Below the pieces are notes generated by a model. It worked only from the letters and a program-made list of their open reading frames with translations. It was not told where the DNA came from and made no database searches. Both the position numbers and the translations under genes were made by a program. DNA of 64,000 bases from Ligustrum vulgare (taxonomy: Eukaryota > Streptophyta > Magnoliopsida > Lamiales > Oleaceae), in the NCBI GenBank assembly GCA_963555705.1, contig OY743169.1:6448014-6512013 (forward strand), read 5' to 3'. Positions 5,101-49,897 of this stretch are shown one piece after another; position 1 is the stretch's first letter; every line of letters begins with the position of its first letter.

Positions 5101-6412
5101 GACCTATATTTCATCAGCCACCTCTCAAAGGAATATATGCTTCAGAGGGATGGTTTATGAAGCTACTGAAGGCAAACAAACATTTTGTCACTAAAAAACC
5201 CAAAAGAGCTCACCTATTTTACTTGCCTTTCAGTTCGCGGGCACTAGAGGTGACTTTATATGTCCCCGATTCTCATAATCGCAGTAACATGCTTCAATGT
5301 TTGAGTAGCTATATGGATTTGATCACAACAAAATATCGTTTCTGGAATAGAACTGGTGGAACAGATCATTTCCTTGTAGCCTGTCATGATTGGGTATGAC
5401 TCTCACTTGGAATTGAAATTCATTACTTTTTTCTTTTTTGGCATTCAGGTTCAAGGATACAATTTCGCAGATATCATTACAATTACTTTTTGCTATTTAT
5501 AGAATTGGTGGAGCAGATCATTCTCTTCCTTTTCTTTAGAAGAGATCATATTTTTTCTTTTGCCATCTTGCATTTTGTCCATGGACCTGTTACTTAAACC
5601 AACTATAATAAACTAAGCTTTATTTCCAAAAAAAATTGGAGTCGGCTTAGACCTTTACTTAACACCCTGAGCAAAATATCTGTAATTTCTAAGTTTCAAT
5701 ATCGAAATCTTACAGAAATCTATTAACATAGTAAATCTTGTGTTCTCAGGCACCAGCAGAGACCAGGGAGAGGATGGCTACTTGTATTAGAGCTTTGTGC
5801 AATGCTGATATCAAAGAAGGGTTCGAGTTTGGTAAAGATGCGTCTCTTCCGGAGACCTTTGTGCGCTCAGCTCAAAATCCTCTTAGAGAACTTGGGGGGA
5901 GACCTCCGTCCCAAAGACGAATCCTTGCTTTCTTTGCTGGAAACATGCATGGTTATCTCCGTCCCATTTTGCTGAATCACTGGGAAAACAAAGATCCTGA
6001 CATGAAGATCTTTGGTCGGATTCATAAAGTGAAAGGCCAAATGAGCTATGTCCAGTACATGAAGAGCAGCAAGTACTGCATATGTGCCAAAGGTTTCGAA
6101 GTAAACAGTCCTAGAGTGGTCGAGGCCATTTTCTACGAATGTGTTCCTGTTATCATATCAGACAATTTTGTCCCACCGTTTTTTGAGACTTTGAATTGGG
6201 AGTCTTTCGCAGTTTTTGTCTTGGAGAAGGACATACCAAATTTGAAGAACATACTTCTATCCATCTCTAAGAAAAGATATCTGAAGATGCAGCAAAGAGT
6301 AAAGCTGGTACAACAGCATTTTCTTTGGCATACCAGGCCTGTGAAGTATGACATTTTCAATATGATACTTCATTCGGTATGGCACAACCGAGTTTTCCAA
6401 ACAATGAAATAG
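2191..6412 (+). CDS. Exostosin-family (GT47) glycosyltransferase, four coding exons
   Basis: Probable Golgi type II membrane glycosyltransferase of the plant exostosin/GT47 family, which acts on cell-wall polysaccharides or glycoproteins; its substrate cannot be told from sequence. Proposed exons are 2191-3066, 3180-3310, 5045-5393 and 5750-6412. All introns are GT-AG and the frame is kept throughout, giving 672 residues. The ATG at 2191 is preferred because MVYELRYACLLETRKLLLVM gives a short cytosolic tail before the membrane anchor (about residues 13-32). A Ser/Asn-rich stem follows, to about residue 290. The catalytic exostosin domain spans about 338-620 and contains LKGIYASEGWFMK, HLFYLPFSSR, LAFFAGNMHGYLRP, SSKYCICAKGFEVNSPRVVE and CVPVIISDNFVPPFF, all typical of the family. 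Intron 2 is long (1,734 bp) and holds repeats. An upstream non-coding exon probably starts near 2078, after an AG. No break is seen, so the gene looks functional. Confidence 0.9.
4264..4396. repeat. Three imperfect direct repeats of about 42 bp in intron 2
   Basis: Three successive copies of a unit beginning AAATCCA and containing TTACACAAGG (or a variant) and CCAACTCTTCAATAA (or a variant) lie within the long second intron of the GT47 gene. They resemble the repeated blocks seen in old LTRs, but no element boundary was found. Confidence 0.5.
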
Positions 6413-21234: not shown

Positions 21235-21328
21235 GTTTGTGTGTGTATCTTTCTCTTTCTATCTCTCTCTCTCTTTTGCTAGTTTGTGCAACCCACTAGT
21301 ACATTTCCTAGTATAGTAGATTACTAAG

Positions 21329-22090
21329 ATGAGTTCTGAAACTCAGAATTCAGAGCCTGAAACCAGTTCAAACTTATCCTCGTCCTTGTCATCATCTTCA
21401 GGAGCATCTCAAATTCAATCAGCTGCCAATAATTCTTCTGTATACACCCAGCAGAAGCTACCCGCAGAAGCTACCAAGAAAATCAAGAGAAACAGGGATT
21501 CTACCAGCGGCGGTAGCAAACACCCGGTCTACCAGGGCGTCAGGATGCGCAACTGGGGCAAATGGGTATCTGAAATCCGCGAGCCCCGCAAGAAATCTCG
21601 CATATGGCTCGGAACTTTCCCCACACCGGAAATGGCAGCCCGAGCTCACGATGTGGCGGCATTGAGCATTAAAGGAACCTCTGCCATACTCAACTTCCCT
21701 GAACACGCCGGTGTATTTCCTCGGCCGGTTTCGCGTAGCCCACGGGATGTTCAGGCTGCTGCAGCCAAAGCAGCTGCAATGAAGAAGTTTGATTTATTCA
21801 CATCCCCTTCATCTTCATCAAGTAGTTTATCATATTCTTCTTCATTGTCATCTCAGGTTTATTCAATAGACCTTTCCACTACATCAGAAGAGTTGAGTGA
21901 GATCACAGAATTGCCGTGTCTGGGATCTTCTTTTGACTCTCTGGAACTGTGGAATGATTTTGTATACGTGGATAACTCGGTGGTGGACAGTTTGCTGGAC
22001 CCTTCTCAGCCGTGGTTGAGCGGTGGTGATGCTGATGATGGTGGTGGAATTTCCAGCTTCAGCTTTGAATCCTTGCTGTGGAATTATTAA
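21329..22090 (+). CDS. DREB-type AP2/ERF transcription factor (group III, TINY-like)
   Basis: An intronless 253-residue nuclear DNA-binding protein. The single AP2 domain spans about residues 66-124 and includes [20 protein letters not shown], then [19 protein letters not shown] and ILNFPE. Val80 and Glu85 (the V14/E19 pair of the domain) mark the DREB branch, which binds DRE/CRT elements (RCCGAC core). [14 protein letters not shown] after the domain and the C-terminal FESLLWNY point to the A-4 or TINY-like subgroup. A basic patch KKIKRNR (50-56) just before the domain may serve for nuclear import. The N terminus (1-42) and residues 159-180 are Ser-rich, and the acidic C-terminal half probably activates transcription. 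These factors usually act in cold, drought or growth responses, but the stimulus for this gene is not visible. No defects are seen. Confidence 0.93.
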
Positions 22091-26093: not shown

Positions 26094-27233
26094 TGATGTG
26101 ATCCAGAACCTCGATAATACGAATCATAGCAGGCTTGGCGGGAAAATTTAAATATTCAAGCCCAAACAAGAATTCAGCAGGTTCGACGAGCTTTGAAGAT
26201 CAAACTGTGTCGAAAAGAACCAAAAATTATGCAGAAGCAAAGTTACTGCCGTAACCAAATATTCTCACGGCCGTAAGTCACTCTCGGATCAAAATGAAGA
26301 ATTCCAGGTTTTCAAAGTTACGGCCATAAGTATTATGGTCACGGCCGTAATCCTTAAGCAGAAGAATAGTTACGGGCGTAAGTGATGCTGTCACGGTCGT
26401 AAGTTAGGATTTTCGCAAATAATGCGAATTTTTAATTCCTTTTTCAATGATGCAAACCACGTAGCAATTGTAACTACGCAACATACAAAATATTGAAATC
26501 GACCCAAGAACGTCAAGAAACCACGATTTATGGATCCAATTAAAATTAATTGAATCAAGCAACTAATACAATCACAAGGATATATTGACCTCTTGATCAC
26601 AAGCAATATTAATTCTCACCGAGATTTGAACAAACAAGAATAACTCGCAAGTTCGGATTTTATTCAATGAAGAATAAGATTGTGAAAGCAAAATAGCTTC
26701 TCAATTATAATATCAAAGTTGTGTGTTGAATAATGAAAATTACATCCCTATAAATAGGGTCAAAACCTAGCTTAAGAGTTTTAATTATATTAGGAAACAA
26801 ATTGTTAAAAATAAGGAAAATAAAACTCTAGTCGTTAATGGACTCAAAATAGAGTTCTAATTAATCTAAAATAGCTAAAAACTGGAAAATGAATAAAAAT
26901 ACGAAAAAGGAATTAAAAATCCGCATTATTTGCGAAAATCCTAACTTACGGCCATGACAGCATCACTTACGGCCGTAACTGTTCTTCTGCTTAAAGATTA
27001 CGGCCGTAACTTTGAAAACCTGGAATTCTTCATTTTGATCCGAGAGTAACTTACGGCCGTGAAAATATTTGGTTACGGCCGTAACTTTGCTTCTGCATAA
27101 TTTTTGGTTCTTTTCGACACGGTTTGATCTTCAAAGGTCGTCGAACCTGCTGAATTCTTGTTTGAGCTTGAATATTTAAATTTTCCCGTTAAGCCTGCTA
27201 TGATTCGTATTATCGAGGTTCTGGATCACATCA
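26094..27233. repeat. Large inverted repeat with 331-352 bp arms
   Basis: The left arm (26094-26445) and right arm (26903-27233) are inverted copies that start TGATGTGATCCAGAACCTCG on each strand. The loop is 457 bp. The arms repeatedly carry the palindromic word TTACGGCCGTAA or one-base variants, alternating with short spacers. The loop, read on the minus strand, has CCCTATTTATAGGG. There are no coding sequences and no target-site duplication. It could be a foldback transposon, or two LTR copies joined in inverted orientation, since a gypsy-type polypurine tract abuts the left edge. Confidence 0.75.
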
Positions 27234-34172: not shown

Positions 34173-34931
34173 TATTAATATGTACACAGAGGCGGAGCCA
34201 ACTAAGGCCCAGCGCTGGCACTTGACCGCGTTGGACTTTAGGTCGTCGTTTAAATTTTTAATTATGCCCGCACTGAACTGAGTTGTGCGTCACCATTTTT
34301 AAGCATTTTAGTTGCAGGTGGAAGGAAGGAGGAAGATGAAAGAGAATTTCTAAAATATCGTGTAGCCAATCTTTTTGTCTTGAAAAGTGGTATTTTTTAA
34401 TAATAATATTTTTTTATTTAACTGTTTGAGCAAGAGTTTTGCATATAGTTTGACTTTTCTTTCAGCGAAGTCTGCTACTGTCATCCTCCCTAAAAATGTA
34501 CTTTATTTATCTGGAGAAAAATTAATTTATTTGAATAAGGTTTTAAATTTTTCATTCTTCGCATTACTAGTTTCTTTCACTCGCTCGGACCCACGAGATA
34601 TAAATGTCCTAGAAATGGACATATGAGAGCATCCAAGTAGATATTGTCAGAGCTAAAAAATAGGTGCTATTTGACAAATATTAATTGAACTTTTTGTGAA
34701 TGTCTAATAAATAGAAATTGAGACAAAGAAATAACCTCCAATACATTATATCTACATCTCAATAATGATGCTTATATGACATTTACATGTTTAAAATAAA
34801 ATTATTTAATACGTAAATATTCAAATGAAATTGCCATATGGACCTACGTGTGCAGTGTTGCTTGAATTATGAGTGGGCCTTCACTAAAGTTGCTTTGTGT
34901 GTGGCTGTTAATTGTTTGAGGAGACAATATC
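34173..34931. other. Gene-free spacer with a hAT-like end
   Basis: CAGAGGCGGAGCCAACTAAG at 34191 resembles a hAT terminus of the CAGGGGCGGA type, but no partner end was found. The target-site copy of the following LTR element is ATATC at 34927-34931. No gene is supportable. Confidence 0.45.
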
Positions 34932-35455
34932 TGTGACGACCCGAATTCTCGACCATTCGAGTGCCACTAAAAGTGACTCATATCATATTATCGAGACTTA
35001 AATAGTAATGTAAAATTTTTCAAAAGAATAATTAGAATCCCATAATTTTATTTCATGAATAAAAATAAAACATAATTTTCTTACATAAAGTTCAACATAA
35101 TTATCTCATCAATCTTAACCACTTTTGCCACTTCCATGTTGACCGCCTCGAACCTTCAATTATCTGAAAATGGTAAATATCGTGGAGTGAGATTTATAAA
35201 ATCCCAGTAAGTATACCAAGCATAATTTTCTTTTGAAAGCATATGGATCATTTTCATCATAACATAGGATAGGATCGAAATCCTCATAAACATAGAGAGA
35301 CACAAGAATTTTACCGAACTTAGATGGCAAGAATTCTTATGTGTAGCGCTACTAAACTCCGGTCCCCTTAGCATAATCATAAACATATCATATGGGACCC
35401 ATAGCAATCTTGTGAGATTGATTTCATAGCAATGATCCAAACATTTTCGTAAAAA

Positions 35456-35790
35456 CATAAGGTATATTTACTTTTCATAAAAACATACTTACTTTTCTTA
35501 AAAACATAAGGTATTTTACTTTTCATAAAAAACATACTTACTTTTCTTAAAAACATAAGGTATTTTACTTTTCATAAAAACATACTTACTTTTCTTAAAA
35601 ACATAAGGTGTATTTACCTTTCATAAAAACATACTTACTTTTCATAAAAACATAAGGTATACTTACTTTTCATAAAAACATAAGGTAATACCTTTCATAA
35701 AAACATACTTACTTTTCATAAAAACATAAGGTATATTTACCTTTCATAAAAACATACTTACTTTTCATAAAAACATAAGATATACTTACT
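35456..35790. repeat. Minisatellite within the LTR
   Basis: Alternating units of TTTTCATAAAAACATACTTAC and TTTTC(T/A)TAAAAACATAAGGTA. The matching array in the other LTR (about 42143-42424) is shorter by one 49-bp double unit. Confidence 0.9.
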
Positions 35791-36011
35791 GTTTAAAAGA
35801 TTAAAATGAAGTGTAGTAGTAAATGGACCAAAACTTTCTTGATCACCTTGAATTTCTCTTACTTGTGAATTTTGTCAAGAGATTGGAAATAAGTGTATAT
35901 GTGTAGAGTTGTGTGTAAAAGAGATGGATTTATATAGATGTGTAAAGTTGGCATAATGTAAACATCATCATTCAATTCTATTAATTTTAACACATCCTTT
36001 TCTTAAAGTAA

Positions 36012-36437
36012 AGCACCATTCATATACTTTTCCATATTTATACAAATATTATGCTCTTCATGATTACATATAATGGAGTCTTATCAACCATTCATATACT
36101 TTTCCATATTTATACAAATATTATGCTCTTCATAATTACATATAATGGAGTCTTATCAACCATTCATATACTTTTCCATATTTATACAAATATTATGCTC
36201 TTCATGATTACATATAATGGAATCTTATCAACCATTCATATACTTTACCATATTTATACAAATATTATGCTCTTCATGATTACATATAATGGAGTCTTAT
36301 CAACCATTCATATACTTTTCCATATTTATACAAATATTATGCTCTTCATGATTACATATAATGGAATCTTATCAACCATTCATATACTTTACCATATTTA
36401 TACAAATATTATGCTCTTCATGATTACATATAATGGA
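36012..36437. repeat. 72-bp tandem array within the LTR, about six copies
   Basis: Each unit contains ATGCTCTTCATGATTACATA and ACCATTCATATACTTT, with alternating TTCCATA and TACCATA variants every other unit. Because 72 is a multiple of three and one frame lacks stops, the array reads through as a repeated peptide; this is not evidence of a gene. The same array occurs at about 42651-43075 in the other LTR. Confidence 0.92.
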
Positions 36438-36801
36438 ACCTCTCATGCTTGCATATATTTTCTTAATTTCAAAAATAAAAATAATTTGTCATGATTAAGG
36501 TCTAAATAAATTTTAACATCCAATTAAGTCCCTAAATTTACAATTTGAGGACTGAAATTGATGTTTTGAAAGTTGAGGGACTAAAATCAATACTTTTGAA
36601 AATAATACTTTGAATAATTAATTCAAATAATATAATTTTAGAAATTCGGACATTTAATTTAAAATCGAACAATCTCGATATTTCTTGACTTGGCTAGACG
36701 AACACGTCGCGGTGTTAACTTCAAAATAATGGGTGAAATAGTAGCGACACGATTTTCTATTAAAATAATTATTAATCGCGTAAAAATTCTTGATCGCTAC
36801 A

Positions 36802-36818
36802 AACTTACCCCCTTAAAA
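36802..36818 (-). other. Polypurine tract of the LTR element
   Basis: Read on the minus strand, AAGGGGGTAAGTT lies directly before the 3' LTR. This is the expected position for priming of plus-strand DNA synthesis. Confidence 0.65.
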
Positions 36819-37596
36819 TAATTTCGTCCTCGAAATTAAACTTACTTGATCTTTGATATCTGGATATTTAACCAGAACTTCTTCTTCTTTATCTTATGTA
36901 GCATCATCGCTACCATATTTAACCCACTGGACTTTGACTAAAAGCATCTCTTTGTTTCTTAAGAACATGGACTTTTCTATCAATAATAGACATATGTGTC
37001 AACTCAAAAATTCTTCTGAATCATAAGTGACTGAAATTCATCATTCTTTGAATTCTAAAAACAACATAACTTATTTCATAATCTTCATACAGTATCACCT
37101 TCAGTTCTCATCATCACATTATTTCTTACAATCATCTATTGTACTTTTATACTCAAATGACCTTACGTCTATTATCATTATCTTACATAATCGCAAACAT
37201 TAAATCACATGTCTCCAATTTCTCATTTTTTGAAAAAATGGCTATTCCTCAAATGGCATCTCACTATCACTTATTCAATAATCCAAAATAACATCACGTC
37301 TCATTACTAATTTCTGTAAACCCAAAAAAAAAATTCTTTCTCTTATACATACTTATGAATTCTGATTCAATACGGTCCTTATTTTACTTTCCACGTATCA
37401 TCACACTATACCATGATTATCATTATTATAACAAAATATCAGTACCCATAATCCAAGAAAATATTCCAAATCTCCAATCAAATCTCATTTATCAATATAA
37501 TTAACACCGCATTAACTCTGTCTCCTCTTTTCATAAAAATAATCCCTGCTTTCTTGCTGGAAACCAAAATCACGCGGATTCACTCAGATCCTTTAT

Positions 37597-37608
37597 GCTT
37601 TTAAATAG
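37597..37608 (+). promoter_or_regulatory. GCTTTTAAATAG motif before the cysteine-rich ORF
   Basis: It lies about 33 bases before the ATG at 37641. A near-identical motif, GCTTTAAATAG, lies at 38404-38414 before the LOG ORF. It could be a TATA box or, if the cassette is virus-derived, a relic of a subgenomic RNA promoter. The sequence alone does not decide between these. Confidence 0.35.
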
Positions 37609-37640
37609 TTCATGCTGGGAAGAGGTTGAATCATCAAACA

Positions 37641-38192
37641 ATGGATATCATTCTTTCTAACATTCGCAAGTATTATTCCAATCTTCCTATGAATGATCTG
37701 AGAAAAATTTATAGAATTAGGCTCGAAAGATTGAGGTTGCTGATGGCTCATGGTATTCCAGAAGATGTTCGCTGGTTGATCGAAGCAAAAGTTCGACTAG
37801 CTGGTGAATTACCATCGACATTTCCAAAACATATGCCTGGTTTAGGCAAAAGCACGTTTGCAAAGAAACGAAGAGCAAAAAGACTGGGTGGTTGCTACAA
37901 ATGTGCTCGTTGGAACTGTAATACTCGTTGCAAATCAGTAGGATATTCTTCTACTAATCGGGATGATAAAATCGAATTCATAAAGGGTGGACTGAGTAAG
38001 GAGTCTTTGGATGATATTCGACTGACTCTTGAGATGCACCCAAGTGGTTATGTGCAACGTGAACTTCTCTCCTTATACGCTCAGTTTAACGAGGACAAAA
38101 ATCATTATAGTCTCCAAAATATAATAGCAAAAGATCCTGTTTGCCAGTCTGTTTTACAAAATGAGGCTTCTGGCAGTTCAGCAATGATATAA
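37641..38192 (+). CDS. Virus-like cysteine-rich nucleic-acid-binding protein
   Basis: An intact 183-residue ORF whose first ATG is at 37641. Residues 70-82 form a basic patch (KSTFAKKRRAKRL), followed at once by four cysteines, C85-x2-C88-x4-C93-x3-C97 (CYKCARWNCNTRC), and then an IEFIKGGLS segment. This order of an arginine/lysine-rich run, a compact Cys cluster and an F(I/V)xxG tail is the signature of the nucleic-acid-binding proteins at the 3' end of carlavirus and vitivirus (Betaflexiviridae) genomes, some of which suppress RNA silencing. Those proteins are usually near 100-130 residues; here an extra N-terminal helical, Arg/Leu-rich section (1-55) and a C-terminal tail are present. It lies 296 bp upstream of the LOG ORF on the same strand, inside an LTR element of opposite polarity. 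No stops or frameshifts. The family call is by motif; a plant zinc-binding protein of convergent form is the alternative. Confidence 0.6.
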   Translation: MDIILSNIRKYYSNLPMNDLRKIYRIRLERLRLLMAHGIPEDVRWLIEAKVRLAGELPSTFPKHMPGLGKSTFAKKRRAKRLGGCYKCARWNCNTRCKSVGYSSTNRDDKIEFIKGGLSKESLDDIRLTLEMHPSGYVQRELLSLYAQFNEDKNHYSLQNIIAKDPVCQSVLQNEASGSSAMI

Positions 38193-38403
38193 GGTAAATC
38201 TTTTGATACGCATTTAAAATATTTTGCTGTTTTCTTTCACGCGTTTTGGAAATAAAATATATTTTCCTTTCTCGAGGTTTGATAAAGCTGGAAATAATTC
38301 ACCGAAAGGTGATATCTTTGGTAAAATAGTCAAAAGTTGTCCGATTTTGTCAAAAGTAAATCTTTACTTTTTCAGAATCAATCAAAAACAGTAAATTTTT
38401 CTG

Positions 38404-38414
38404 GCTTTAAATAG
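38404..38414 (+). promoter_or_regulatory. GCTTTAAATAG motif before the LOG ORF
   Basis: It lies 75 bases upstream of the ATG at 38489 and matches the motif before the neighbouring ORF at 37597-37608. It is placed well for a TATA box, with a CT-rich leader downstream (TCTTCTTCGTAAGTTTTTCC). Confidence 0.4.
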
Positions 38415-38488
38415 CCAAACATATTTCATAGTTCAGGCATCCCAAAATCACATCTTCTTCGTAAGTTTTTCCTTCTTTACTATCAAAG

Positions 38489-39142
38489 ATGGAAGCACGA
38501 AATCTTCGACAGATCAAAACTATTTGTGTATTTTGTGGATCAAAAGTAGGGAAAGGCTTCGGTTATCTAGAAGCGGCTGTAGATCTTGGAAAGAAACTGG
38601 GGGAAAAAGGTATCACTCTTGTGTATGGGGGTGGTATCAGTGGTCTAATGGGTTGTGTTTCCCAATCTGCTCTTGCAGAGAAATCAAAAGTAATCGGTGT
38701 CATACCTGTCCCTTTGGTAGATGTTGCAGGAAAAACACGAGGGCATGAAGTTCAAACCTTATCCATCCATGAACGCATAACTTGTATGCTATATGGTTCT
38801 GATGCCTTTATAGCCCTGCCCGGAGGTTTTGGTACCTTAGAAGAAATCTTTAACATTACCTCGTGGGCTCAACTAGATCTCCATACTAAGCCTATTGGGC
38901 TTCTGAATGTTAACAATTTCTTTGATGGTTTGTTAACCTTTCTTGATTATTCTGTGGAACAGGGATTCATCTCTCCATTTTTCAGAAGGCTTCTTATTTC
39001 TGCTCCTACTATTGATGAACTACTGGATAAGCTGCAGTCATATATCTCAATACAAGATCCAGCAGGAGTTAAGATAGATTGGTCGCAAGGAAGGGGAATC
39101 AAGCGAAAATGGAGTCCGGTTAATGTAAATTTAACTCTGTGA
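38489..39142 (+). CDS. LOG-type cytokinin riboside 5'-monophosphate phosphoribohydrolase
   Basis: An intact, intronless 217-residue ORF. LOG enzymes release active cytokinin bases from their nucleotides in one step, in the cytosol or nucleus. The family motifs are clear: TICVFCGSKVGK (11-22), LVYGGGISGLMG (44-55), VIGVIP (68-73), FIALPGGFGTLEE (107-119, the PGGxGTxxE phosphoribosyl-binding motif), and WAQLDLHTKPIGLLN followed by GFISP. Length is normal for plant LOG. The segment after the conserved HER (94-96) reads ITCM where plant LOG proteins normally have KA(A/E)M, so an active-site edge has changed. Plant LOG genes normally have several introns, so an intronless copy implies an RNA intermediate or a non-host source. 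It lies antisense within an LTR retrotransposon, downstream of a virus-like ORF. It is probably expressible, but activity is uncertain. Confidence 0.9.
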   Translation: MEARNLRQIKTICVFCGSKVGKGFGYLEAAVDLGKKLGEKGITLVYGGGISGLMGCVSQSALAEKSKVIGVIPVPLVDVAGKTRGHEVQTLSIHERITCMLYGSDAFIALPGGFGTLEEIFNITSWAQLDLHTKPIGLLNVNNFFDGLLTFLDYSVEQGFISPFFRRLLISAPTIDELLDKLQSYISIQDPAGVKIDWSQGRGIKRKWSPVNVNLTL

Positions 39143-39151
39143 ATCTTAGAA

Positions 39152-39378
39152 TAGGTGGGGGTAGAGTACGGAGTATTCTCACTCTCGAGACACCCCTCCA
39201 TTTACTAGGATTTCTTAATGTTTAAATCTTGTGTGTACCTCAAAGGTTCCAGGTGGTAGATTACGGAGTATTCTTACTCTCGAAACACACCTCTTTGAAG
39301 GTTTTTTCTTTATATCCTCAAAAGATCAGAGGTGGTAGGATACGGCTACTCCGGAAACACATCTCTCATTCTGAGGAT
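39152..39378 (+). repeat. Three related hairpin-like repeats downstream of LOG
   Basis: Three units (39152-39202, 39240-39300 and 39319-39378) share GGTGGTAG(A/G)(G/T)TACGG, then ACTCTCGAAACAC (or variants). In each, a GGTG-containing left arm can pair with a CACC- or CACATC-containing right arm; the second also pairs CAAAG with CTTTG. They begin 10 bases after the LOG stop. Their role is unknown; a structured 3' UTR is a reasonable guess. Confidence 0.6.
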
Positions 39379-39464
39379 CTTTCCATGTTTTTCTCTTATG
39401 CTTTCATGTGTTTCATGTATTTCCTTTCCAGTGTGACTCTTGTGTGTTCTCCTTATGAGAAAAT

Positions 39465-39470
39465 AATAAA
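39465..39470 (+). terminator. Possible polyadenylation signal of the LOG transcript
   Basis: AATAAA in AAATAATAAAATCTC, about 320 bases after the LOG stop codon and beyond the three hairpin-like repeats. Confidence 0.4.
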
Positions 39471-39504
39471 ATCTCTGCTATCATCTTCTAAATCTCGTTT
39501 GTGA

Positions 39505-41604
39505 TGTAAATGAACTTGCATGTCTAACCTTAATTCCTTTAGTGGATGCTTATCATATCATGCTCTTAATTCCAAATGATAAAATTCTGGACAGAGTCTC
39601 CCTTGTAATTTGGACTTATCCAAACCATAAGCATACTTCATAACTCACAATAATAACTAACTCCACATTTGATCACAACGATCTAAAAATTGACCACAAT
39701 TTCATCAAACTTCAATATCATAAAAAATATTCCAGAAAATCAATTCATAATTCCTCAACATAGAAATTTCAAATCATAGTCGTCAATATCACAATATCAC
39801 TTTCTTCAATACCTTAATTGGCTCAAAAGATTACTCATACTTATAAATATAAGTCATAAATCATATTCCCAAAATTTAATCACAAGGCCAAAGTTCATAA
39901 TAAATTTCTCTTCAATATAGAGGCATAATTCACTTACTCAACATAATATCCATTACTTAATTCCCAATAACCAAATATTTAAATCTCTAACTTCATAATG
40001 CTTCTCATAAAAGTCTCATTAAAATCATATCACTTACAATCTTAACATCTCATAAAACTTCATAAAATTGGCTCGCTATTTCTCATTAAATCTAAATGAT
40101 AGATAATCTGAACATATTTCTAATCATTTCTGTTGACTTCTCATACTTAGTGCCATGTCTAAAATCAATTATGCAAAGTCCATCTAGGGTTCATCATTTC
40201 TAACTCGAGGACAACAATTATTTTGAAAATCATTCTTAAGTCATATTATTCCCATTATGCTCAACACCCGTTCTCTTTCTTTCTTTTCTTTCTGATTTTT
40301 TTTTTCTTTTCAGAATTGAAACTTGAAGAGTGGTACCAATAATCATCCACAGTTTTTCCTTGCTTTTAAGCAAAGGTAGTGATAAAGGGATAAATTATTG
40401 AACCGAAAATCGAAACTTGAAGAGGAAGTACTAATAACCATCCACAGTTTTTCCCTTGTTTTTACACAAAGGTAGTGATAAAGGGATAAATTATTGTACG
40501 AATTCATTATTAATTTTGTTTGTTTAATATATTATTCCATATATTTTTGGCAAAAGTTACGAACCAACTTATTTTTCTAATTTAGTCAGTCTTACTAAGC
40601 TTAATATGAACCAAAATTCATATCAATATCCTCTATGTCTCATGATTCTACATTAAAAGGAATAAATTAGAATTCAGGCTTCTATCAATTCATATCATAC
40701 TCAACATGTATATTTCACTTAAAGATTCATAATATATGAAGATTTCATACTTAACATGTCTTAATAAAATCGTAAATGACTTGCAAAGCATATAACATAC
40801 CTGGTTCGAGGAGTCAATACGTGGAGAGTGACATAGTAGAGTGATGAGTTAAAATATTTCATATAATCTTATTTTCCTTTAATCAACAATAATTTAATGT
40901 GGTTGTATCCAAATCAACATTTTCTTGAATCATAATTCCTAATTAATCACAGTCTTCAAAACAAATTCAATATCGATATAGTAATTATCTCCCCATCAAT
41001 AATTAATAACTTAACCCAAATAAAATTTATCGTCAAATCTTATTTTCCTTTAGTCCCCGAACTTCTAGAAATTTATCAAAGATATCAATATAAACATCAT
41101 ATCACTAACTAATTATATTCCATAAAATTTTCAGGACATTACAAACTCCCCTGCTTAAAATGAATTTTGTCCTTGAAATTCGCACATCAAATTTCATCAT
41201 GCTTTTCAAAATCATAACCATACTTGACATGTGAAAATTCAAATTTTCTTATCATAAAGCAAGCTTTTAAAGTCATGCCAATAGACTAACTTTTCATTTC
41301 ATCACATGTGTAAAAAATGTGCAAATCTTTACATTGTTTTAAACTCATAAATCTTATAAAATAATTAACCCAACTAAAATTTCAAGGTCAAATACATTAA
41401 AGAAGAAACTAAACTCTAGAAAATTTTGAAAATATGTCTTTGAAAAATAATTTCCCAGATTTTTTTTATATAATGAATAGTGATTTCGTTCACTGTTCAT
41501 CATGAATAGCACGTCGTTTTACTGTTCACGTGAATAGTGATTTTTTTTTTTTTTTTTTAAGAAATAAAATTTCAAAATCTACAGAATCGTTTTTAAAACT
41601 CTTT
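39505..41604. other. Interior of the LTR element without ORFs
   Basis: About 2.1 kb of very AT-rich sequence with no reading frame of note on either strand and no gag or pol motif. It includes a direct duplication at 40317-40495. Confidence 0.6.
40317..40495. repeat. Tandem duplication of about 90 bp
   Basis: Two units (40317-40400 and 40411-40495) share GAAACTTGAAGAG, CATCCACAGTTTTTCC and GGTAGTGATAAAGGGATAAA. Confidence 0.85.
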
Positions 41605-41616
41605 GCTCTGATACCA
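41605..41616 (-). other. Primer-binding site, initiator tRNA-Met type
   Basis: GCTCTGATACCA on the + strand is the reverse of TGGTATCAGAGC. It lies two bases from the LTR starting at 41619. This fixes the polarity of the retrotransposon as minus. Confidence 0.92.
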
Positions 41617-41618
41617 AC

Positions 41619-43439
41619 TGTGACGACCCGAATTCTCGACCATTCGAGTGCCACTAAAAGTGACTCATATCATATTATCGAGACTTAAATAGTAATGTAA
41701 AATTTTTCAAAAGAATAATTAGACTCCCATAATTTTATTTCATGAATAAAAATAAAACATAATTTTCTTACATAAAGTTCAACATAATTATCTCATCAAT
41801 CTTAACCACTTTTGACACTTCCATGTTGACCGCCTCGAACCTTCAATTATCTGAAAATGGTAAATATCGTGGAGTGAGATTTATAAAATCCCAGTAAGTA
41901 TACCAAGCATAATTTTCTTTTGAAAGCATATGGATCATTTTCATCATAACATAGGATAGGATCGAAATCCTCACAAACATAGAGAGACACAAGAATTTTA
42001 CCGAACTTAGATGGCAAGAATTCTTATGTGTAGCGCTACTAAACTCCGGTCCCCTTAGCATAATCATAAACATATCATATGGGACCCATAGCAATCTTGT
42101 GAGATTGATTTCATAGCAATGATCCAAACATTTTCGTAAAAACATAAGGTATATTTACTTTTCATAAAAACATACTTACTTTTCTTAAAAACATAAGGTA
42201 TTTTACTTTTCATAAAAAACATACTTACTTTTCTTAAAAACATAAGATATTTTACTTTTCATAAAAACATACTTACTTTTCTTAAAAACATAAGGTGTAT
42301 TTACCTTTCATAAAAACATACTTACTTTTCATAAAAACATAAGGTATACTTACTTTTCATAAAAACATAAGGTAATACCTTTCATAAAAACATACTTACT
42401 TTTCATAAAAACATAAGATATACTTACCGTTTAAAAGATTAAAATGAAGTGTAGTAGTAAATGGACCAAAACTTTCTTGACCACCTTGAATTTCTCTTAC
42501 TTGTGGATTTTGTCAAGAGATTGGAAATAAGTGTATATGTGTAGAGTTGTGTGTAAAAGAGATGGATTTATATAGATGTGTAAAGTTGGCATAATGTAAA
42601 CATCATCATTCAATTCTATTAATTTTAACACATCCTTTTCTTAAAGTAAAGCACCATTCATATACTTTTCTATATTTATACAAATATTATGCTCTTCATG
42701 ATTACATATAATGGAGTCTTATCAACCATTCATATACTTTTCCATATTTATACAAATATTATGCTCTTCATAATTACATATAATGGAGTCTTATCAACCA
42801 TTCATATACTTTTCCATATTTATACAAATATTATGTTCTTCATGATTACATATAATAGAATCTTATCAACCATTCATATACTTTACCATATTTATACAAA
42901 TATTATGCTCTTCATGATTACATATAATGGAGTCTTATCAACCATTCATATACTTTTCCATATTTATACAAATATTATACTCTTCATGATTACATATAAT
43001 GGAATCTTATCAACCATTCATATACTTTACCATATTTATACAAATATTATGCTCTTCATGATTACATATAATGGAACCTCTCATGCTTGCATATATTTTC
43101 TTAATTTCAAAAATAAAAATAATTTGTCATGATTAAGGTCTAAATAAATTTTAACATCCAATTAAGTCCCTAAATTTACAATTTGAGGACCGAAATTGAT
43201 ATTTTGAAAGTTGAGGGACTAAAATCAATACTTTTGAAAATAATACTTTGAATAATTAATTCAAATAATATAATTTTAGAAATTCGGACATTTAATTTAA
43301 AATCTAACAATCTCGATATTTCTTGACTTGGCTAGACGAACACGTCGCGGTGTTAACTTCAAAATAATGGGTGAAATAGTAGCGACACGATTTTCTATTA
43401 AAATAATTATTAATCGCGTAAAAATTCTTGATCGCTACA
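41619..43439 (-). repeat. 5' LTR of the retrotransposon (element sense is minus)
   Basis: 1,821 bp, TG...CA, about 99% identical to the 34932-36801 copy by eye. It is followed by the ATATC target-site copy at 43440-43444. Confidence 0.95.
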
Positions 43440-43444
43440 ATATC

Positions 43445-44836: not shown

Positions 44837-45080
44837 TGTAGAAAACTACACGTATATATATTCTTATATATGTTCAACCAATTAATCAAGAAGAAAAGAA
44901 GAAGAAGAAGAAAGAAAGAGAGATGCGAGGCAACCCTAAAACGAATTGTCAAGAAAAATATATTGAATTAATCATAATATTCAAAACTATATATAAACAC
45001 AATACAATCTAAACTAGGAAAGCTATAATTAGGAAAGCTACTATAATTATAATAAACTAATTATACTAATTATTCTAACA
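44837..45080 (-). repeat. 3' LTR of the copia element
   Basis: 244 bp, TG...CA. A GAAGAAGAAG tract differs in length from the other LTR. Confidence 0.93.
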
Positions 45081-45093
45081 TCCCCCCGCAAAC

Positions 45094-48000
45094 TCATGAT
45101 GCTATAGCAAGCAGCAGCGAGAGTTCGTCAAGTAAGAATCGAAAGCGGTGAGTCGGATGGGACTTTGTGAAGAAGTCTGCTAGCTGCAACGAGGAAGAGA
45201 CAAAAGGTAAGGCAATAATCACATGCTGAAGATGATGACGAACAAGATGACAGTCAATCTCAATGTGCTTCGTACGCTCGTGGAACACAGAATTGTGTGA
45301 GATTTGTATGGCACTCTTATTGTCACAATACAAGGGGGTGGAAGAGGAAAGGTGAACACCCATATCTGCAAGTATCCAACGTAACCACACAATCTCAGTA
45401 GTAGTGGAGGCCATGACACGATATTCTGCTTCAGTAGATGAGCGAGAAACTACTGATTTCTTCTTACTTTTCCAAGAGATAAGAGAATCATCCAAAAATA
45501 CACAAAAACCAGTAGTGGACTTAAGATCAGTTGGGTTCCCAGCCCAATCTGCATCGGAGTAAGCACGAAGCTCTAAAGAGGAGGTCGTTGGGAATAAAAG
45601 ACTCTGAAAACAAGAACCACGGAGATAGCGCAAGATCCGAACAACCGCTGCCCAGTGAACCATGGTAGGTGCTGAAACAAACTGACTAACAACATGCACA
45701 ACATAAGCAATGTCAGGCCTAGTGATGGTAAGATAAACAAGAGAACCAACAATAGTGCGATATAAATCAGGATCTGTTAATGGTTCACCATTAGAAGGTG
45801 AGTAACGAACATTAGTCTCAATAGGAGTATCAGCTGTTTTAGTATCAGTAAGACGAGCACGCTCAATGACATCTAAGGCATATTTAGACTGAGAGAGCAT
45901 ATAACATCTAGGAGAAGAAGCAACCTCAATCCCTAGAAAGTAGGATAAGTGACCCAAATCCTTCATTTCAAAAAGACGAGTCAATTCAGATTTTAGAATA
46001 GTTATCCCCACAACATCATCACCAGTAATGATCATGTCATCAACATACAACAGAAGGAGGATACGACCAGCTGGAGTAGACCTGCAGAACAAGGCGGAAT
46101 CATGATGGCTAAATGTAAAACCAAGAGAGAGAGAACAACTGTAGAGAACCTCTCAAACCAAGCACGAGGTGCTTGTTTGAGACCATATAAAGCTTTCTTG
46201 AGTTTGCAAACAAATCCGGGAGAATGAGGAACACCAGGTGGAGGAACCATATAAACATCTTCTTGAAGATTTCCATTCAAGAAGGCATTTTTAACATCCA
46301 TTTGAGAGAGACTCCACTGACAAACAGAAGCAACTGCGATAAGTGTACGTACAATAGTCATTTTTGCAACAGGGGCAAATGTCTCCTCAAAATCCAAGTC
46401 ATACTGTTGAGAAAATCCCTTAGCAACCAATCGAGTCTTATAACGCTCAACTGAACCATCAGATTTAGTCTTAATTTTATAGACCCAACGAGATCCAATA
46501 GCATGTTTACCCAGTGGTAAGGAAACTAATTTCCAAGTGTCTGTCTTATGTAGAGCAGAGAGTTCATCAGTCATAACCTGTTGCCAAAGGGGATCTAAAG
46601 CTGCTTCTTTATAGGAGGAAGGTTCAGAAAGCTTATGAATGGAAGACAAGAAACAAAAAAAGGATTCAGAGTAACAAGAATAATCAAAATCAGGTAAGTG
46701 AGTAGATTTACGTGTACGTTGAGGATATCGAGGAGGGGGAGACAGGGGATTCTCAGACTCAGATGGTGCTTGGGGAGCCATAGGAGAATGAAGGACATTC
46801 TGAGATGGCGCATGTGTACCTGTAGCATGTGACGAAAATGGAGAAGAGATAGTAGGAGTGGGTGTAGGTGGTCTAGCAATGTCGTCGGTGAATGGATCAA
46901 TACAAATGAGATCTAATGTAGTCATGTGAGAAGTATTATCAGTAATAGAAAAGAATGTAATGTGTTCAAGAAACACATCATTACGAGAGACATATAACTT
47001 GTGACTAACAAGATCAAAACATCGATAACCTTTTTGTCCCTCACCATATCCTAAGAAGACACAAATAGCTAAACGTGGAGTTAATTTACTACGTTCTGCT
47101 GTGGGACGAAGAACAAAACAAGTGCACCCAAAGACTTTTAAGATAGAATAATCAGGAGAATAACTAAACAAAGATTGAAATGGTGACAAACCAGATGTGT
47201 GAGAAGATGGTATCCTATTAATCAAATAGACAGCGATGAGAACGGTCTCTCCCCAAAATTCACTAGGTACCTTGGCAGATAGAAGAAGGGAACGAGCAGT
47301 TTCAATAATGTGTCTATACTTACGTTCAGCAACACCATTCTGTTTAGGAGTATCAGTACAGGAAGTTTGATGGATTGTACCATCAAGAGCAAGCAACTCA
47401 CGAAAATCAGTAAAAATATATTTCCCACCCAAATCACATAGAAAACATTTAATGATAGCAGAATGTTGAGTTTTAACGAGTACTCTGAATGAACGATAAA
47501 TAGAAAGAAATTCAGAACGTCGCTTCATAAGATATACCCAACAGTAACAACTACAATCATCAATAAAGGAAACATAATATCTGGACCCTCCTTTAGTAGA
47601 AACAGGAGGAGGGCCCCACACATCTGAGTGCACAAGATCAAATGATGCAACAGAAGAAGAAACACTACGAGGAAAAGGTAAAGCAGAGAATTTAACAAGT
47701 TTGCAACCACTACAATCAGAAATGTCATGAGGTTTCAAGTCTCCTAAACAACATTTAGAAGCTAAAAATTTTAAACGACTAGTAGACACATGTCCAAGGC
47801 GAGAATGCCATAAATAGAAATTAGAAGAAGAAGAATTCAAATGAAACAATGATAAGTCAATACTAGAGGCTGCAACATGCGCTGGTTTCAGACTATCCAG
47901 AACAGAAAGTCCGCTCTGCCTATGGCCTATCCAATCAGCTTCTGAGACTGCGGATCCTGTACATAATAAGAAGTAGAAGTAAAGTGAACAGAATGTCCAG

Positions 48001-49234
48001 AATCACATAATTGACCAATAGAGATAAGATTTAAAGTAAGATCGGGAACACAATAGACATCTGAAAGAGATAGATTAGAAGTATGAACAGAACCAACGTC
48101 TGCTAAAGACAACGGGGAGCCATCAGCAGTCATAACAGATGTAGACGACGTAGAAGGATATAAAGAGTCAAAAAGTGATGAGTTAGAAGACATATGCTTG
48201 GAAGCACCCGAGTCAAAAATCCATGAGGAAGGTTTACCTGAGGAATTCTGAGAGGACAAACCTACATGAGTAGAGGCAGACATGGCATGTGGCTGGGAGG
48301 CTAAAAACTTCTAAAACTGCTCACTAAGATCAGTTAACCTGGAATCAGATGAGGGTGGTGGTCCAAGTATAGAGGAGCCAATAGATGGAACAACCGCTGC
48401 TGTGTGAGCATTGGATCTATAAGACTGCTGCGGTGATGAGTAATAACTCTGCTGCTGTGACTTCAACAATTTAGGACATTGAGCCTTCCAATGTCCCTTT
48501 TGTCTACAAAAACTACAAACATCATTTGGGACCCGTACATGTCCTTTGGTTCAATTCTGTGTAGATGGTACAGCTAAAACAGAAGTCCCAGAATGTGAAA
48601 GAGATACATCTTCAGTAAGAGATTTCAACCGTGTCTCCTCAGCAACAAGTTCACTAACAACTGAATCAATAGATGGAAGGGGAGTACGATGCAAAATAGA
48701 ACATCTGAGCCCCTCAAACTCACTACGAAACGCCATCAAAAATTGAACTAGTCGTTGCTCCGCTCTATAGGTAGTATAATCCTCACATGCTTTCAATCCT
48801 ACTGGTTCAGTAAGAGCTAACTCATCCTAAATTAATGTCATAACAGTATAAAAATCTAGAATGCTCATATTCTTTTGTTGCAATGCCCGAATGTCAATCT
48901 CTAACTGATATCGTTTTCCAAAATTAGATTTAGTGTACAACTTCTGTAAATGGTCCCAAACCTCCTTTGCTGTTTCATACTTAGCCAACTGTGTACCAAT
49001 ACTATGTTCAGCGGAATTATTTATCCACGTAAGAATTTTTGAATTATTTGAATCCCAGGTATCTAACACAGTTGCATAATTTGCATCATTGGTTCCCGAT
49101 TTGTCAATTGTTCCACTTACATAACCCCACATCTTTTTACCCTTAAGAAAGTGTTTTATAACATGACTCTAGTAAGCATAATTTTTACCATCCAAACGCA
49201 CATTAATAGCTTGAAGAGAATCATCAGATACCAT
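45094..49234 (-). pseudogene. Copia gag-pol polyprotein, several breaks
   Basis: The order is copia: gag, protease, integrase, reverse transcriptase, RNase H. Gag starts at 49234 and runs through MWGYVSG, with a CCHC knuckle (CSFCRQKGHWKAQC, near 48510-48470). The protease has WIFDSGASKHM. The integrase shows WHSRLGHVS, DLVHSDVWGP and NGVAERK. The reverse transcriptase has NAFLNGNLQEDVYM and LLLYVDDMIITGDD, and RNase H has AYSDADWAG, STEAEYR and DNKSAIQI. Breaks: TAG stops replacing probable Trp codons near 49171 and 48829, a TGA near 48550, a TAG and frame change near 47926, and a two-base CT expansion near 46135 that shifts frame inside the reverse transcriptase. It cannot make a full polyprotein. 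Confidence 0.92.
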
Positions 49235-49644
49235 GATAAGCGAAAGAAAACGATACTAACCAATAAAGTGAAGCAGAGCAGTTTATAAAACAAGCAGATA
49301 AATTCAAACCAACACCACGGAAAGGTAGAAAATGAGAAGTCGATCACTTTTCCGTCAGCCGCGTCTCCAGAAACCCCTCCACGCGCCCCCACGCGCCATC
49401 GCAGTGTCCGGCCAACCGTCTCACGCTCCTCCTCAAACCGGCGCGTGACACCACACACGCCGCTCCGATGGATGCGCCGACGTCTTCTGAGTCAGAATAT
49501 GGTATTGGTTCGTCGAAATACCTACTGTAGGTGCCTCGAAAATAGTGAAAACAGTGACGATTTAGGGTTTTGAGGCGAGGAAGAAAAAACTGCACAATTA
49601 TTTCGTTTTTCAACAACAATTTGATTCAAATTGCTCTAATACCA

Positions 49645-49897
49645 TGTAGAAAACTCAATGACACATATATATATTCTTATATATGTTCAACAAATTAATC
49701 AGAAGAAAAAAAGAAAAGAAGAAGAAGAAAGAAAGAGAGATGTGAGGTAACCCTAAAACGAATTGTCAAGAAAAATATATTGAATTAATCATAATACTCA
49801 AAACTATATATAAACATAATACAATCTAAACTAGGAAAGCTATAATTAGGAAAGTTACTATAATTATAATAAACTAATTATGCTAATTATTCTAACA
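49645..49897 (-). repeat. 5' LTR of the copia element
   Basis: 253 bp, TG...CA, adjacent to the primer-binding site at 49633-49644. Confidence 0.93.

What the first reader, a model, noticed from the sequence alone, without database searches (positions are those of the whole stretch)
34932..43439. LTR retrotransposon carrying a virus-like zinc-binding gene and a LOG cytokinin gene on its antisense strand
Seen: perfect 5-bp duplication, matched LTRs, initiator-Met primer site on the minus strand, no gag-pol, and two intact same-strand ORFs in antisense. Known: the first has the signature of betaflexivirus nucleic-acid-binding proteins, and the second is a LOG enzyme that activates cytokinins. 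Inference: a mobile cassette joining a virus-derived gene and a hormone-activation gene has been packaged into a non-autonomous retrotransposon. It may come from a virus that itself carried LOG, or from two separate captures. I do not know a described element of this make-up.
Basis: partly seen in the sequence, partly recalled or inferred. Interest (0 to 1): 0.92.

Follow-up and report, generated by a model that had tools for sequence, protein, structure and literature searches.

The report
Jumping genes sharing a virus-hormone cassette
A plant jumping element carries, back to front, a pair of working-looking genes, one resembling a plant-virus silencing suppressor and one resembling a hormone-activating enzyme, and unrelated jumping elements in the same genome carry the same pair, which suggests that such elements trade a ready-made tool kit for manipulating their host.

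Summary
Window 34932-43439 is one recent insertion of a pol-less LTR retrotransposon on the minus strand: TSD ATATC, LTRs differing at 14 of 1821 sites plus one 49-bp gap, tRNA-Met type primer site, PPT. On the plus strand it carries two intact ORFs: an NABP-like gene (Pfam Viral_NABP and Carla_C4, both above cut-off) and a LOG gene.

It is no one-off. The pair is a ~2.1-kb cassette with TATA-like boxes. It sits in three LTR families of this genome that align with each other only in the cassette: copia-gag elements, short-LTR elements and the window's family. NABP lay beside LOG in 20 of 20 fetched loci. Between-family dN/dS is 0.08-0.19, so both proteins are under selection. NABP relatives occur in Orobanche, Striga, Populus, Citrus, Acer and Xanthoceras. 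The nearest LOG relatives separate from cellular LOG1/3 and mostly end in a basic, EAR-like tail (94 of 120 versus 0 of 120).

LOG domains in Citrus and Populus gypsy elements are in print. I found no report of the viral partner, the cassette or its sharing. Function (silencing suppression plus cytokinin activation) is inferred.

The parts
34927..34931 (.). target site duplication ATATC (left copy)
43440..43444 (.). target site duplication ATATC (right copy)
41619..43439 (-). 5' LTR of the element (1821 bp, TG..CA)
34932..36801 (-). 3' LTR of the element (1870 bp)
   Evidence: 99.2% identical to the other LTR outside one 49-bp gap
41605..41616 (-). primer binding site TGGTATCAGAGC (tRNA-iMet type)
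   Evidence: tRNA identity recalled
36808..36814 (-). polypurine tract AAGGGGG
37407..39477 (+). NABP-LOG cassette: stretch shared with family A (about 235 bp before the NABP start to 335 bp past the LOG stop); against family B the shared stretch is shorter (about -46 to +262)
37600..37608 (+). TATA-like box TTTAAATAG, 41 nt before the NABP start codon
   Evidence: such a box at -53 to -39 in 20 of 20 loci with a usable start; shuffles mean 0.7, max 4
37641..38192 (+). NABP-like ORF, 183 aa, basic stretch KKRRAKR and Cys cluster
38406..38414 (+). TATA-like box TTTAAATAG, 83 nt before the LOG start codon
   Evidence: such a box at -85 to -75 in 19 of 20 loci with a usable start (absent in L016); shuffles mean 0.9, max 4
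38489..39142 (+). LOG ORF, 217 aa, uninterrupted, PGGFGTLEE motif, C-terminus VNVNLTL
39153..39197 (+). 3'-region repeat unit 1 (GGTGG..GTAGAGTACGGAGTA..)
39251..39293 (+). 3'-region repeat unit 2
39330..39366 (+). 3'-region repeat unit 3
39465..39470 (+). AATAAA poly(A)-like signal near the end of the stretch shared with family A
   Evidence: family A copies shown read AATAATAATATC there
36015..36437 (.). 72-bp tandem array in the LTR (also 42653-43075); a 49-bp array at 35444-35682 and 42131-42369

Best explanation
A recent insertion of a high-copy, pol-less LTR retrotransposon that carries an antisense accessory cassette of two protein genes. Shown: the element, the intact genes, the cassette's recurrence in three LTR families of this genome that share nothing else alignable, and purifying selection on both proteins. 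Inferred: (i) the cassette is its own transcription unit, both genes having a TATA-like promoter read against the element; (ii) it spread between element families by recombination or template switching and was kept because its proteins help the elements; (iii) the NABP works as its betaflexivirus relatives do, as a nuclear, zinc-binding RNA-silencing suppressor and transcription regulator, easing silencing of the element and of the partner elements that supply reverse transcriptase; (iv) the LOG enzyme releases active cytokinin and, through its basic EAR-like tail, may act in the nucleus with TOPLESS-type corepressors, favouring dividing or meristematic cells where new copies reach the germ line. 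Elements without pol are mobilised in trans by autonomous copia or gypsy relatives.
For: Structure and age. Pfam: Viral_NABP 29.3 bits (cut-off 23), Carla_C4 27.3 (20.9), Lysine_decarbox 114.9 (27); of 16 aligned NABPs scanned, 15 match Carla_C4 and 14 Viral_NABP. Foldseek against viral models: 13 of the 15 best rows are proteins of betaflexi- or allexiviruses, 11 of them named nucleic-acid-binding protein or RNA silencing suppressor (2 rows unnamed), though none of 26 rows is significant. NABP adjacent to LOG in 20 of 20 loci fetched for LOG: 12 family A, 7 family B, 1 family C. Cross-family alignment confined to the cassette in the nine cross-family pairs examined, bar short pieces next to it (identities). 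dN/dS between families (AC, BC, AB): LOG 0.134, 0.084, 0.091; NABP 0.170, 0.173, 0.191. TATA-like boxes at near-fixed distance. The nearest LOG relatives: one side of a 100/100 split against cellular LOG1/3, C-terminal LxLxL in 94 of 120 versus 0 of 120. [quoted passage not shown]
Against: No expression, enzyme or silencing data. The NABP-virus match is distant; the NABP model has mean pLDDT 63 and no Foldseek hit passes 0.001. The window's own tail (VNVNLTL) does not meet strict LxLxL, so the EAR reading is weak for this copy. The cellular comparison covers LOG1/3-like proteins only, and the 120 LOG relatives were not each shown to lie in elements. The 20 loci were my choice among the 150 best-scoring LOG matches, which favours intact LOG (NABP was not selected); even so 7 of 21 collected LOG frames are short. 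Exact TSDs were found for only 4 of 12 family A loci (several are arrays or cut copies). No autonomous partner was identified. The 3' repeat region does not fold better than shuffles (z -0.21).
Confidence: 0.6

Rival explanations
1. Passenger capture: two host or viral transcripts were picked up by chance and ride along without function, as in transduced gene fragments of Bs1-type elements.
For: Plant LTR elements do pick up host sequences (PMC7264820, passages).
Against: Full-length frames in 14 of 21 (LOG) and 20 of 21 (NABP) collected copies and dN/dS 0.08-0.19 between families; the same gene pair in three LTR families; NABP relatives in several eudicot orders.
Confidence: 0.05
2. A virus with the gene order NABP then LOG existed, and its 3' end was captured whole by a retrotransposon; the cassette is a viral module rather than two separate captures.
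For: NABP is the 3'-terminal gene in carlaviruses (recalled); the order NABP-LOG is also seen in three fused Orobanche gene models and one of Citrus; the stretch shared by A and C ends near a poly(A)-like signal.
Against: No viral contig with the NABP; five LOG-bearing viral contigs match at only 29-42% identity. I expect the collection to hold few plant RNA viruses, so this is weak. Separate TATA-like boxes suggest DNA-based expression.
Confidence: 0.15
3. Single ancestral acquisition: all carrier families descend from one cassette-bearing element, and everything but the cassette has diverged beyond recognition.
For: Families B and C form their own clusters and A the remainder on the unrooted cassette tree, as descent would give; A and C share the primer type.
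Against: The non-coding 3' region (84-90%) and the spacer (73-79%) are alike across families while LTRs and other sequence are not alignable; family B has a different primer site, and A has a copia gag absent from the window element.
Confidence: 0.15
4. The antisense transcript itself, not the proteins, is what matters: it makes double-stranded RNA with the genomic transcript and tunes element activity.
For: Proposed for antisense ORF elements in general (PMC7264820, passages).
Against: Protein-level purifying selection and conserved protein motifs across eudicots are not explained.
Confidence: 0.05
5. The LOG acts other than by making cytokinin: as a nucleotide hydrolase on other monophosphates, or as a scaffold whose EAR-like tail recruits a corepressor to element chromatin or silencing factors.
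For: Basic and LxLxL tail present in most of the nearest LOG relatives and absent in LOG1/3-type cellular LOGs; long branch to cellular LOG.
Against: PGGxGTxEE motif kept in 113 of 120 of those LOGs, so catalysis is probably kept.
Confidence: 0.3

Closest known systems
Ty3/gypsy elements of Citrus and Populus with a YgdH (LOG) domain (PMC9289625, section 12 and passages; Steinbauerova et al. 2011, not seen)
   Same: LOG-family gene carried by plant LTR retrotransposons
   Different: Reported as a domain in gypsy-type consensus sequences; the paper reports its 15 extra domains in gypsy as opposed to copia. The NABP partner, the two-gene cassette, its presence in copia-gag elements and its exchange are not mentioned in the parts I read
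Plant elements with antisense additional ORFs (Grande, RIRE2, Retand, PvRetro13; PMC7264820 and PMC11963269, passages)
   Same: Conserved ORFs antisense to the element, on the 3' LTR side, with their own promoter in Grande
   Different: Those ORFs carry Transposase_28, SMC-like or no known domains; here one gene is of viral NABP type and the other of an enzyme family, and unrelated families share them
Bdelloid rotifer LTR retrotransposons with shared ORF3 types (PMC5408684, passages)
   Same: Extra enzymatic ORFs exchanged between highly diverse retroelement types
   Different: Different genes (DEDDy exonuclease, GDSL esterase), animals, not a two-gene antisense cassette
Betaflexivirus/carlavirus cysteine-rich proteins (e.g. 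chrysanthemum virus B p12; PMC7588395, PMC12172455, passages)
   Same: Pfam families Viral_NABP and Carla_C4; basic stretch followed by a Cys cluster
   Different: Carried by a retrotransposon, longer (183 aa; the viral rows are mostly 69-157), distant in sequence
VANC anti-silencing proteins of Arabidopsis VANDAL transposons (PMC5735166, PMC10398659; starts of abstracts in a search listing)
   Same: Transposon-encoded counter-measure against host silencing (here inferred)
   Different: Sequence-specific anti-silencing proteins of another transposon class; no sequence comparison made here
TR-GAG elements
   Same: Family A here: LTRs, gag, no frame long enough for pol (name and definition recalled; only a search listing seen)
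   Different: Carries the antisense cassette; the window's own element lacks even gag

Membership tests
LTR retrotransposon | two matched LTRs in direct orientation, TG..CA | tested here: met
LTR retrotransposon | target site duplication | tested here: met
   ATATC both sides
LTR retrotransposon | PBS after the 5' LTR and PPT before the 3' LTR | tested here: met
LTR retrotransposon | own gag and pol (autonomous) | tested here: not met
   no open frame of 130 aa or more inside but the two antisense ORFs; no gag match
TR-GAG | gag present, pol absent (definition recalled) | tested here: not met
   window element has no gag; family A has a copia-type gag and no further frame of pol length
Retand / Tat lineage with antisense ORFs | Transposase_28 antisense ORF; non-Met PBS | tested here: not met
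   PBS is tRNA-Met type, which non-chromovirus gypsy elements do not use (PMC6317226, passages); no Transposase_28 in either ORF
Viral NABP / carlavirus cysteine-rich protein | match to the curated profile above cut-off | tested here: met
   PF05515 29.3 over 23, PF01623 27.3 over 20.9
Viral NABP / carlavirus cysteine-rich protein | basic stretch and zinc-type Cys cluster | tested here: met
   basic motif in 103 and Cys cluster in 109 of the 120 listed relatives
Viral NABP / carlavirus cysteine-rich protein | common fold | tested here: inconclusive
   model pLDDT 63; 13 of the 15 best Foldseek rows are betaflexi-/allexivirus proteins but none significant
Viral NABP / carlavirus cysteine-rich protein | silencing suppression and nuclear activity | not testable with these tools
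   needs bench work
LOG cytokinin-activating enzymes | Lysine_decarbox profile and PGGxGTxxE motif | tested here: met
   114.9 bits over 27; PGGFGTLEE
LOG cytokinin-activating enzymes | nearest relatives with solved structures are plant LOG-family proteins | tested here: met
   best match At2g37210, 7e-56 (its name LOG3 matches and recall)
LOG cytokinin-activating enzymes | phosphoribohydrolase activity on cytokinin ribotides | not testable with these tools
   needs an enzyme assay
Bianca (Ty1/copia) for family B | PBS complementary to half tRNA-Ile | tested here: inconclusive
   CGTTATCAGCACGAG at the LTR end in 5 of 7 loci, variants in L010 and L026; fits the recalled tRNA-Ile; PMC6317226 (passages) gives this PBS class to Bianca; no tRNA sequence compared

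The most novel reading that the evidence does not exclude
Plant LTR retrotransposons of different lineages share and exchange a two-gene host-manipulation module: a virus-type silencing suppressor/transcription regulator plus a nuclear cytokinin-activating enzyme with a corepressor-recruiting tail. The elements both disarm silencing and push cells towards division, the retroelement counterpart of a viral virulence region, kept under selection across eudicots.
Probability: 0.35. Interest if true: 0.92.

Novelty: new variant of a known kind. Interest (0 to 1): 0.8.

Why it matters
What antisense extra ORFs of plant retrotransposons do is a standing open question (PMC7264820, PMC11963269, passages). 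Here both proteins belong to families with known activities and are under purifying selection, so direct assays (silencing suppression, cytokinin release, corepressor binding) can answer it. It would also show that plant retroelements of different lineages pass accessory genes among themselves, that one such gene is of plant-virus type, and that some annotated LOG and viral-NABP-like genes in plant genomes are probably transposon genes.

Tried and rejected
Viral carrier: scans of viral contigs with the NABP (single sequence and profile) gave no relative; with the LOG profile, five contigs at 29-42% best-segment identity, not followed. Plasmids, with the NABP: none. RNA family in the element: one sub-threshold match only. 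Structured 3' region: it folds no better than shuffles (z -0.21), and nine repeat units gave 6 predicted pairs, 3 with any change on both sides; not claimed. NABP fold search: model too weak to rest on. The residue count around the HxRx site used a poorly set pattern and is not used. Autonomous partner of the window family: not reached. Assembly join rejected: further copies with the same build.


Full report
THE ELEMENT. Window 34932-43439 is a single LTR retrotransposon insertion read on the minus strand. LTRs are 1870 and 1821 bp, differ at 14 of 1821 aligned sites and by one 49-bp gap, and are flanked by a perfect ATATC duplication. A 49-bp tandem array lies in the LTR. With a recalled rate of 1.3e-8 per site per year the K2P distance of 0.0077 means about 0.3 million years. 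On the minus strand the LTR is followed by GT and TGGTATCAGAGC, and AAGGGGG precedes the other LTR. The 4817-bp interior has no gag or pol: its only open stretches of 130 aa or more are the two plus-strand ORFs, and a copia gag from a relative finds nothing there.

THE TWO GENES. ORF 37641-38192 matches Viral_NABP (29.3 bits, cut-off 23) and Carla_C4 (27.3, cut-off 20.9); ORF 38489-39142 matches Lysine_decarbox (114.9, cut-off 27) and is closest among solved structures to At2g37210 (7e-56). Of 16 aligned NABPs, 15 match Carla_C4 and 14 Viral_NABP. A model of the NABP is weak (mean pLDDT 63.3). Of 26 Foldseek rows against viral models none reaches 0.001, yet 13 of the 15 best are proteins of betaflexi- or allexiviruses, 11 of them named nucleic-acid-binding protein or RNA silencing suppressor; the other two rows are unnamed.

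NOT A ONE-OFF. The genome (1.385 Gb, unnamed) returns 150 scored LOG matches out of 7995 first-look candidates; in 149 of 150 the matched domain has no stop (these are the best-scoring ones, so biased). I chose and fetched 20 of these 150 places as 10-kb stretches. All 20 have an NABP beside the LOG, in L026 only its last third and in L013 in two pieces. All-against-all comparison sorts them into three groups. A, 12 loci: a copia-type gag frame in most (Retrotran_gag_2, 7e-25 in L013), LTRs of about 1.8 kb where both are whole, a tRNA-Met type PBS in 10 of 12, and no further frame of pol length; exact TSDs in 4 of 12 (ATTAA, GCCTT, CCAAC, CCCCC), the others being arrays, cut copies or without one; L011 has no LTR pair in its stretch. 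B, 7 loci: terminal repeats of about 175-260 bp, a PPT of the AAGGGGGA kind, exact TSDs in 6 of 7 (CTTGC, TAAAT, TTATC, GAATT, CAAAA, TATAT), and the primer site CGTTATCAGCACGAG in 5 of 7, which fits half tRNA-Ile (tRNA recalled; PMC6317226 gives this class to Bianca, a copia lineage). C: L027 with the window's element; L027's LTR matches the window's only in part, so C is a loose family. The stretch of L028 (B) also holds a piece of the window's LTR and a broken gag, both outside the B element. Where an exact tRNA-Met PBS is present (11 of 20 loci, L027 included), LOG lies on the opposite strand.

A SHARED CASSETTE. In nine cross-family pairs compared at word size 7, alignment covers the cassette only: from about 235 bp before the NABP start to 335 bp past the LOG stop between A and C; about -46 to +262 between B and C; and from about +250 to +43, in two pairs about -250, between A and B; a few short pieces just outside, at 68-76% identity, repeat or extend the upstream stretch. 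In 14 loci (7 A, 5 B, 2 C) LOG is 89-90% identical between families, NABP 82-89%, the first 262 bp of the 3' region 84-90%, and the spacer 73-79% with many gaps. Non-coding parts of the cassette are thus alike while LTRs and the rest are not alignable, which favours exchange over simple descent. On an unrooted cassette tree of 18 of the 21 loci (three were dropped by the script's filters) B and C each form a cluster and A the remainder. TATA-like boxes stand 39-53 nt before NABP in 20 of 20 and 75-85 nt before LOG in 19 of 20 loci with a usable start, against shuffle means of 0.7 and 0.9 (maximum 4); copies are related, so this shows conservation, not independent events. The A-C shared stretch ends near a poly(A)-like signal.

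SELECTION. Among frames of full length (LOG 14 of 21 collected, NABP 20 of 21; shorter frames dropped), mean dN/dS between families is 0.134, 0.084 and 0.091 for LOG and 0.170, 0.173 and 0.191 for NABP (AC, BC, AB), with mean dS 0.37-0.66. LOG was used to choose the loci; NABP was not.

THE WINDOW'S OWN FAMILY. The LTR search scored 40 of 6114 candidates and shows several pairs spaced about 6-6.9 kb, the window's own spacing being 6.7 kb. Of the six loci it delivered outside the window, L045 and L047 carry an NABP 93 and 95% identical to the window's, L044, L046 and L048 carry matching interior on the other side, and L049 shows neither within its flanks. A cassette search scored 40 of 3794 candidates, all 40 at 93-100% over nearly the whole 2071 bp.

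ACROSS PLANTS. NABP relatives (269 proteins, best 120 listed) occur in Orobanche, Striga, Populus, Citrus, Acer and Xanthoceras; three Orobanche gene models and one of Citrus fuse NABP and LOG in this order. LOG relatives (5121, best 120 listed) include clusters with many members in Reevesia, Populus and Xanthoceras. That these copies lie in LTR elements was not tested here; for Citrus and Populus it is in print that gypsy-type consensus sequences carry a LOG (YgdH) domain (PMC9289625, section 12 read).

THESE LOGS DIFFER FROM CELLULAR LOGS. In a tree of 59 proteins the window's LOG with 35 of its nearest relatives and 23 cellular LOG1/3-type LOGs separate with 100/100 support (bootstrap not fully settled; a midpoint root puts two Xanthoceras-type relatives on the cellular side). 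94 of the 120 nearest relatives have LxLxL in the last 16 residues, typically KKRKLDLTLRL, against 0 of 120 cellular ones. The cellular set is the best 120 of 7998 matches to LOG3, so other LOG classes are not covered. LxLxL as an EAR (TOPLESS-binding) motif is recalled. The window copy ends in VNVNLTL, a degenerate form. The PGGxGTxEE motif is kept in 113 of 120 (cellular set 108 of 120).

HOW IT MOST LIKELY WORKS. Inferred: pol-less elements moved by autonomous partners carry an independent antisense transcription unit. [quoted passage not shown] The LOG would release active cytokinin. Together they would relieve silencing and favour dividing cells. The structural and selection claims I hold at about 0.9; the functional scheme at about 0.35-0.45.

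NOVELTY. Searches of the held library found the LOG domain in gypsy elements but, in listings and the passages read, no report of an NABP in a retrotransposon, of the pair, or of its sharing between families. Most subscription papers are not held (Steinbauerova 2011 was not seen), so absence from print is not proven. Sharing of extra ORFs between retroelement types is known in bdelloid rotifers (PMC5408684, passages). Hence: new variant of a known kind.

Noticed in passing
window 44837-49897: Another LTR-type element next door: ~250-bp direct repeats (93%) and minus-strand frames with gag_pre-integrs, rve and RVT_2, the RVT_2 domain split between two overlapping frames (copia type).
   Followed up: partly
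window 5735-6409 and 21320-22087: Host-type frames: Exostosin GT47 and an AP2 domain.
   Followed up: no
window 26094-26445 and 26903-27233: Inverted repeat pair of about 350 bp, 90% identical, some 460 bp apart.
   Followed up: no
window 39153-39366; also in the family A and B loci compared: Three ~40-nt related units downstream of LOG with a very conserved core (GTAG..TA.GG..GA.A.AC), each between short complementary-looking flanks; no Rfam match and no significant fold.
   Followed up: partly
L015 6007-6423, L017 6355-6771, L022 3502-3930, L023 6137-6556: In several family A copies a further open frame of about 140 aa lies just upstream of NABP on the same strand; not searched.
   Followed up: no
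G000 C9:20014811-20029273 and C16:40316459-40332791: Tandem arrays of the family A type gag with 3.4- and 3.9-kb periods, too short to hold the cassette with full LTRs: perhaps gag elements without the cassette.
   Followed up: no
e.g. C2:24821734-24846566, C11:32533948-32548484, C17:243997-256293: Carrier elements often stand in head-to-tail arrays (period about 6-7 kb), as LTR-LTR recombination would make.
   Followed up: partly
L013 9147-9998: Transposase_28 frame beside a family A element, the antisense ORF type of Retand elements.
   Followed up: no
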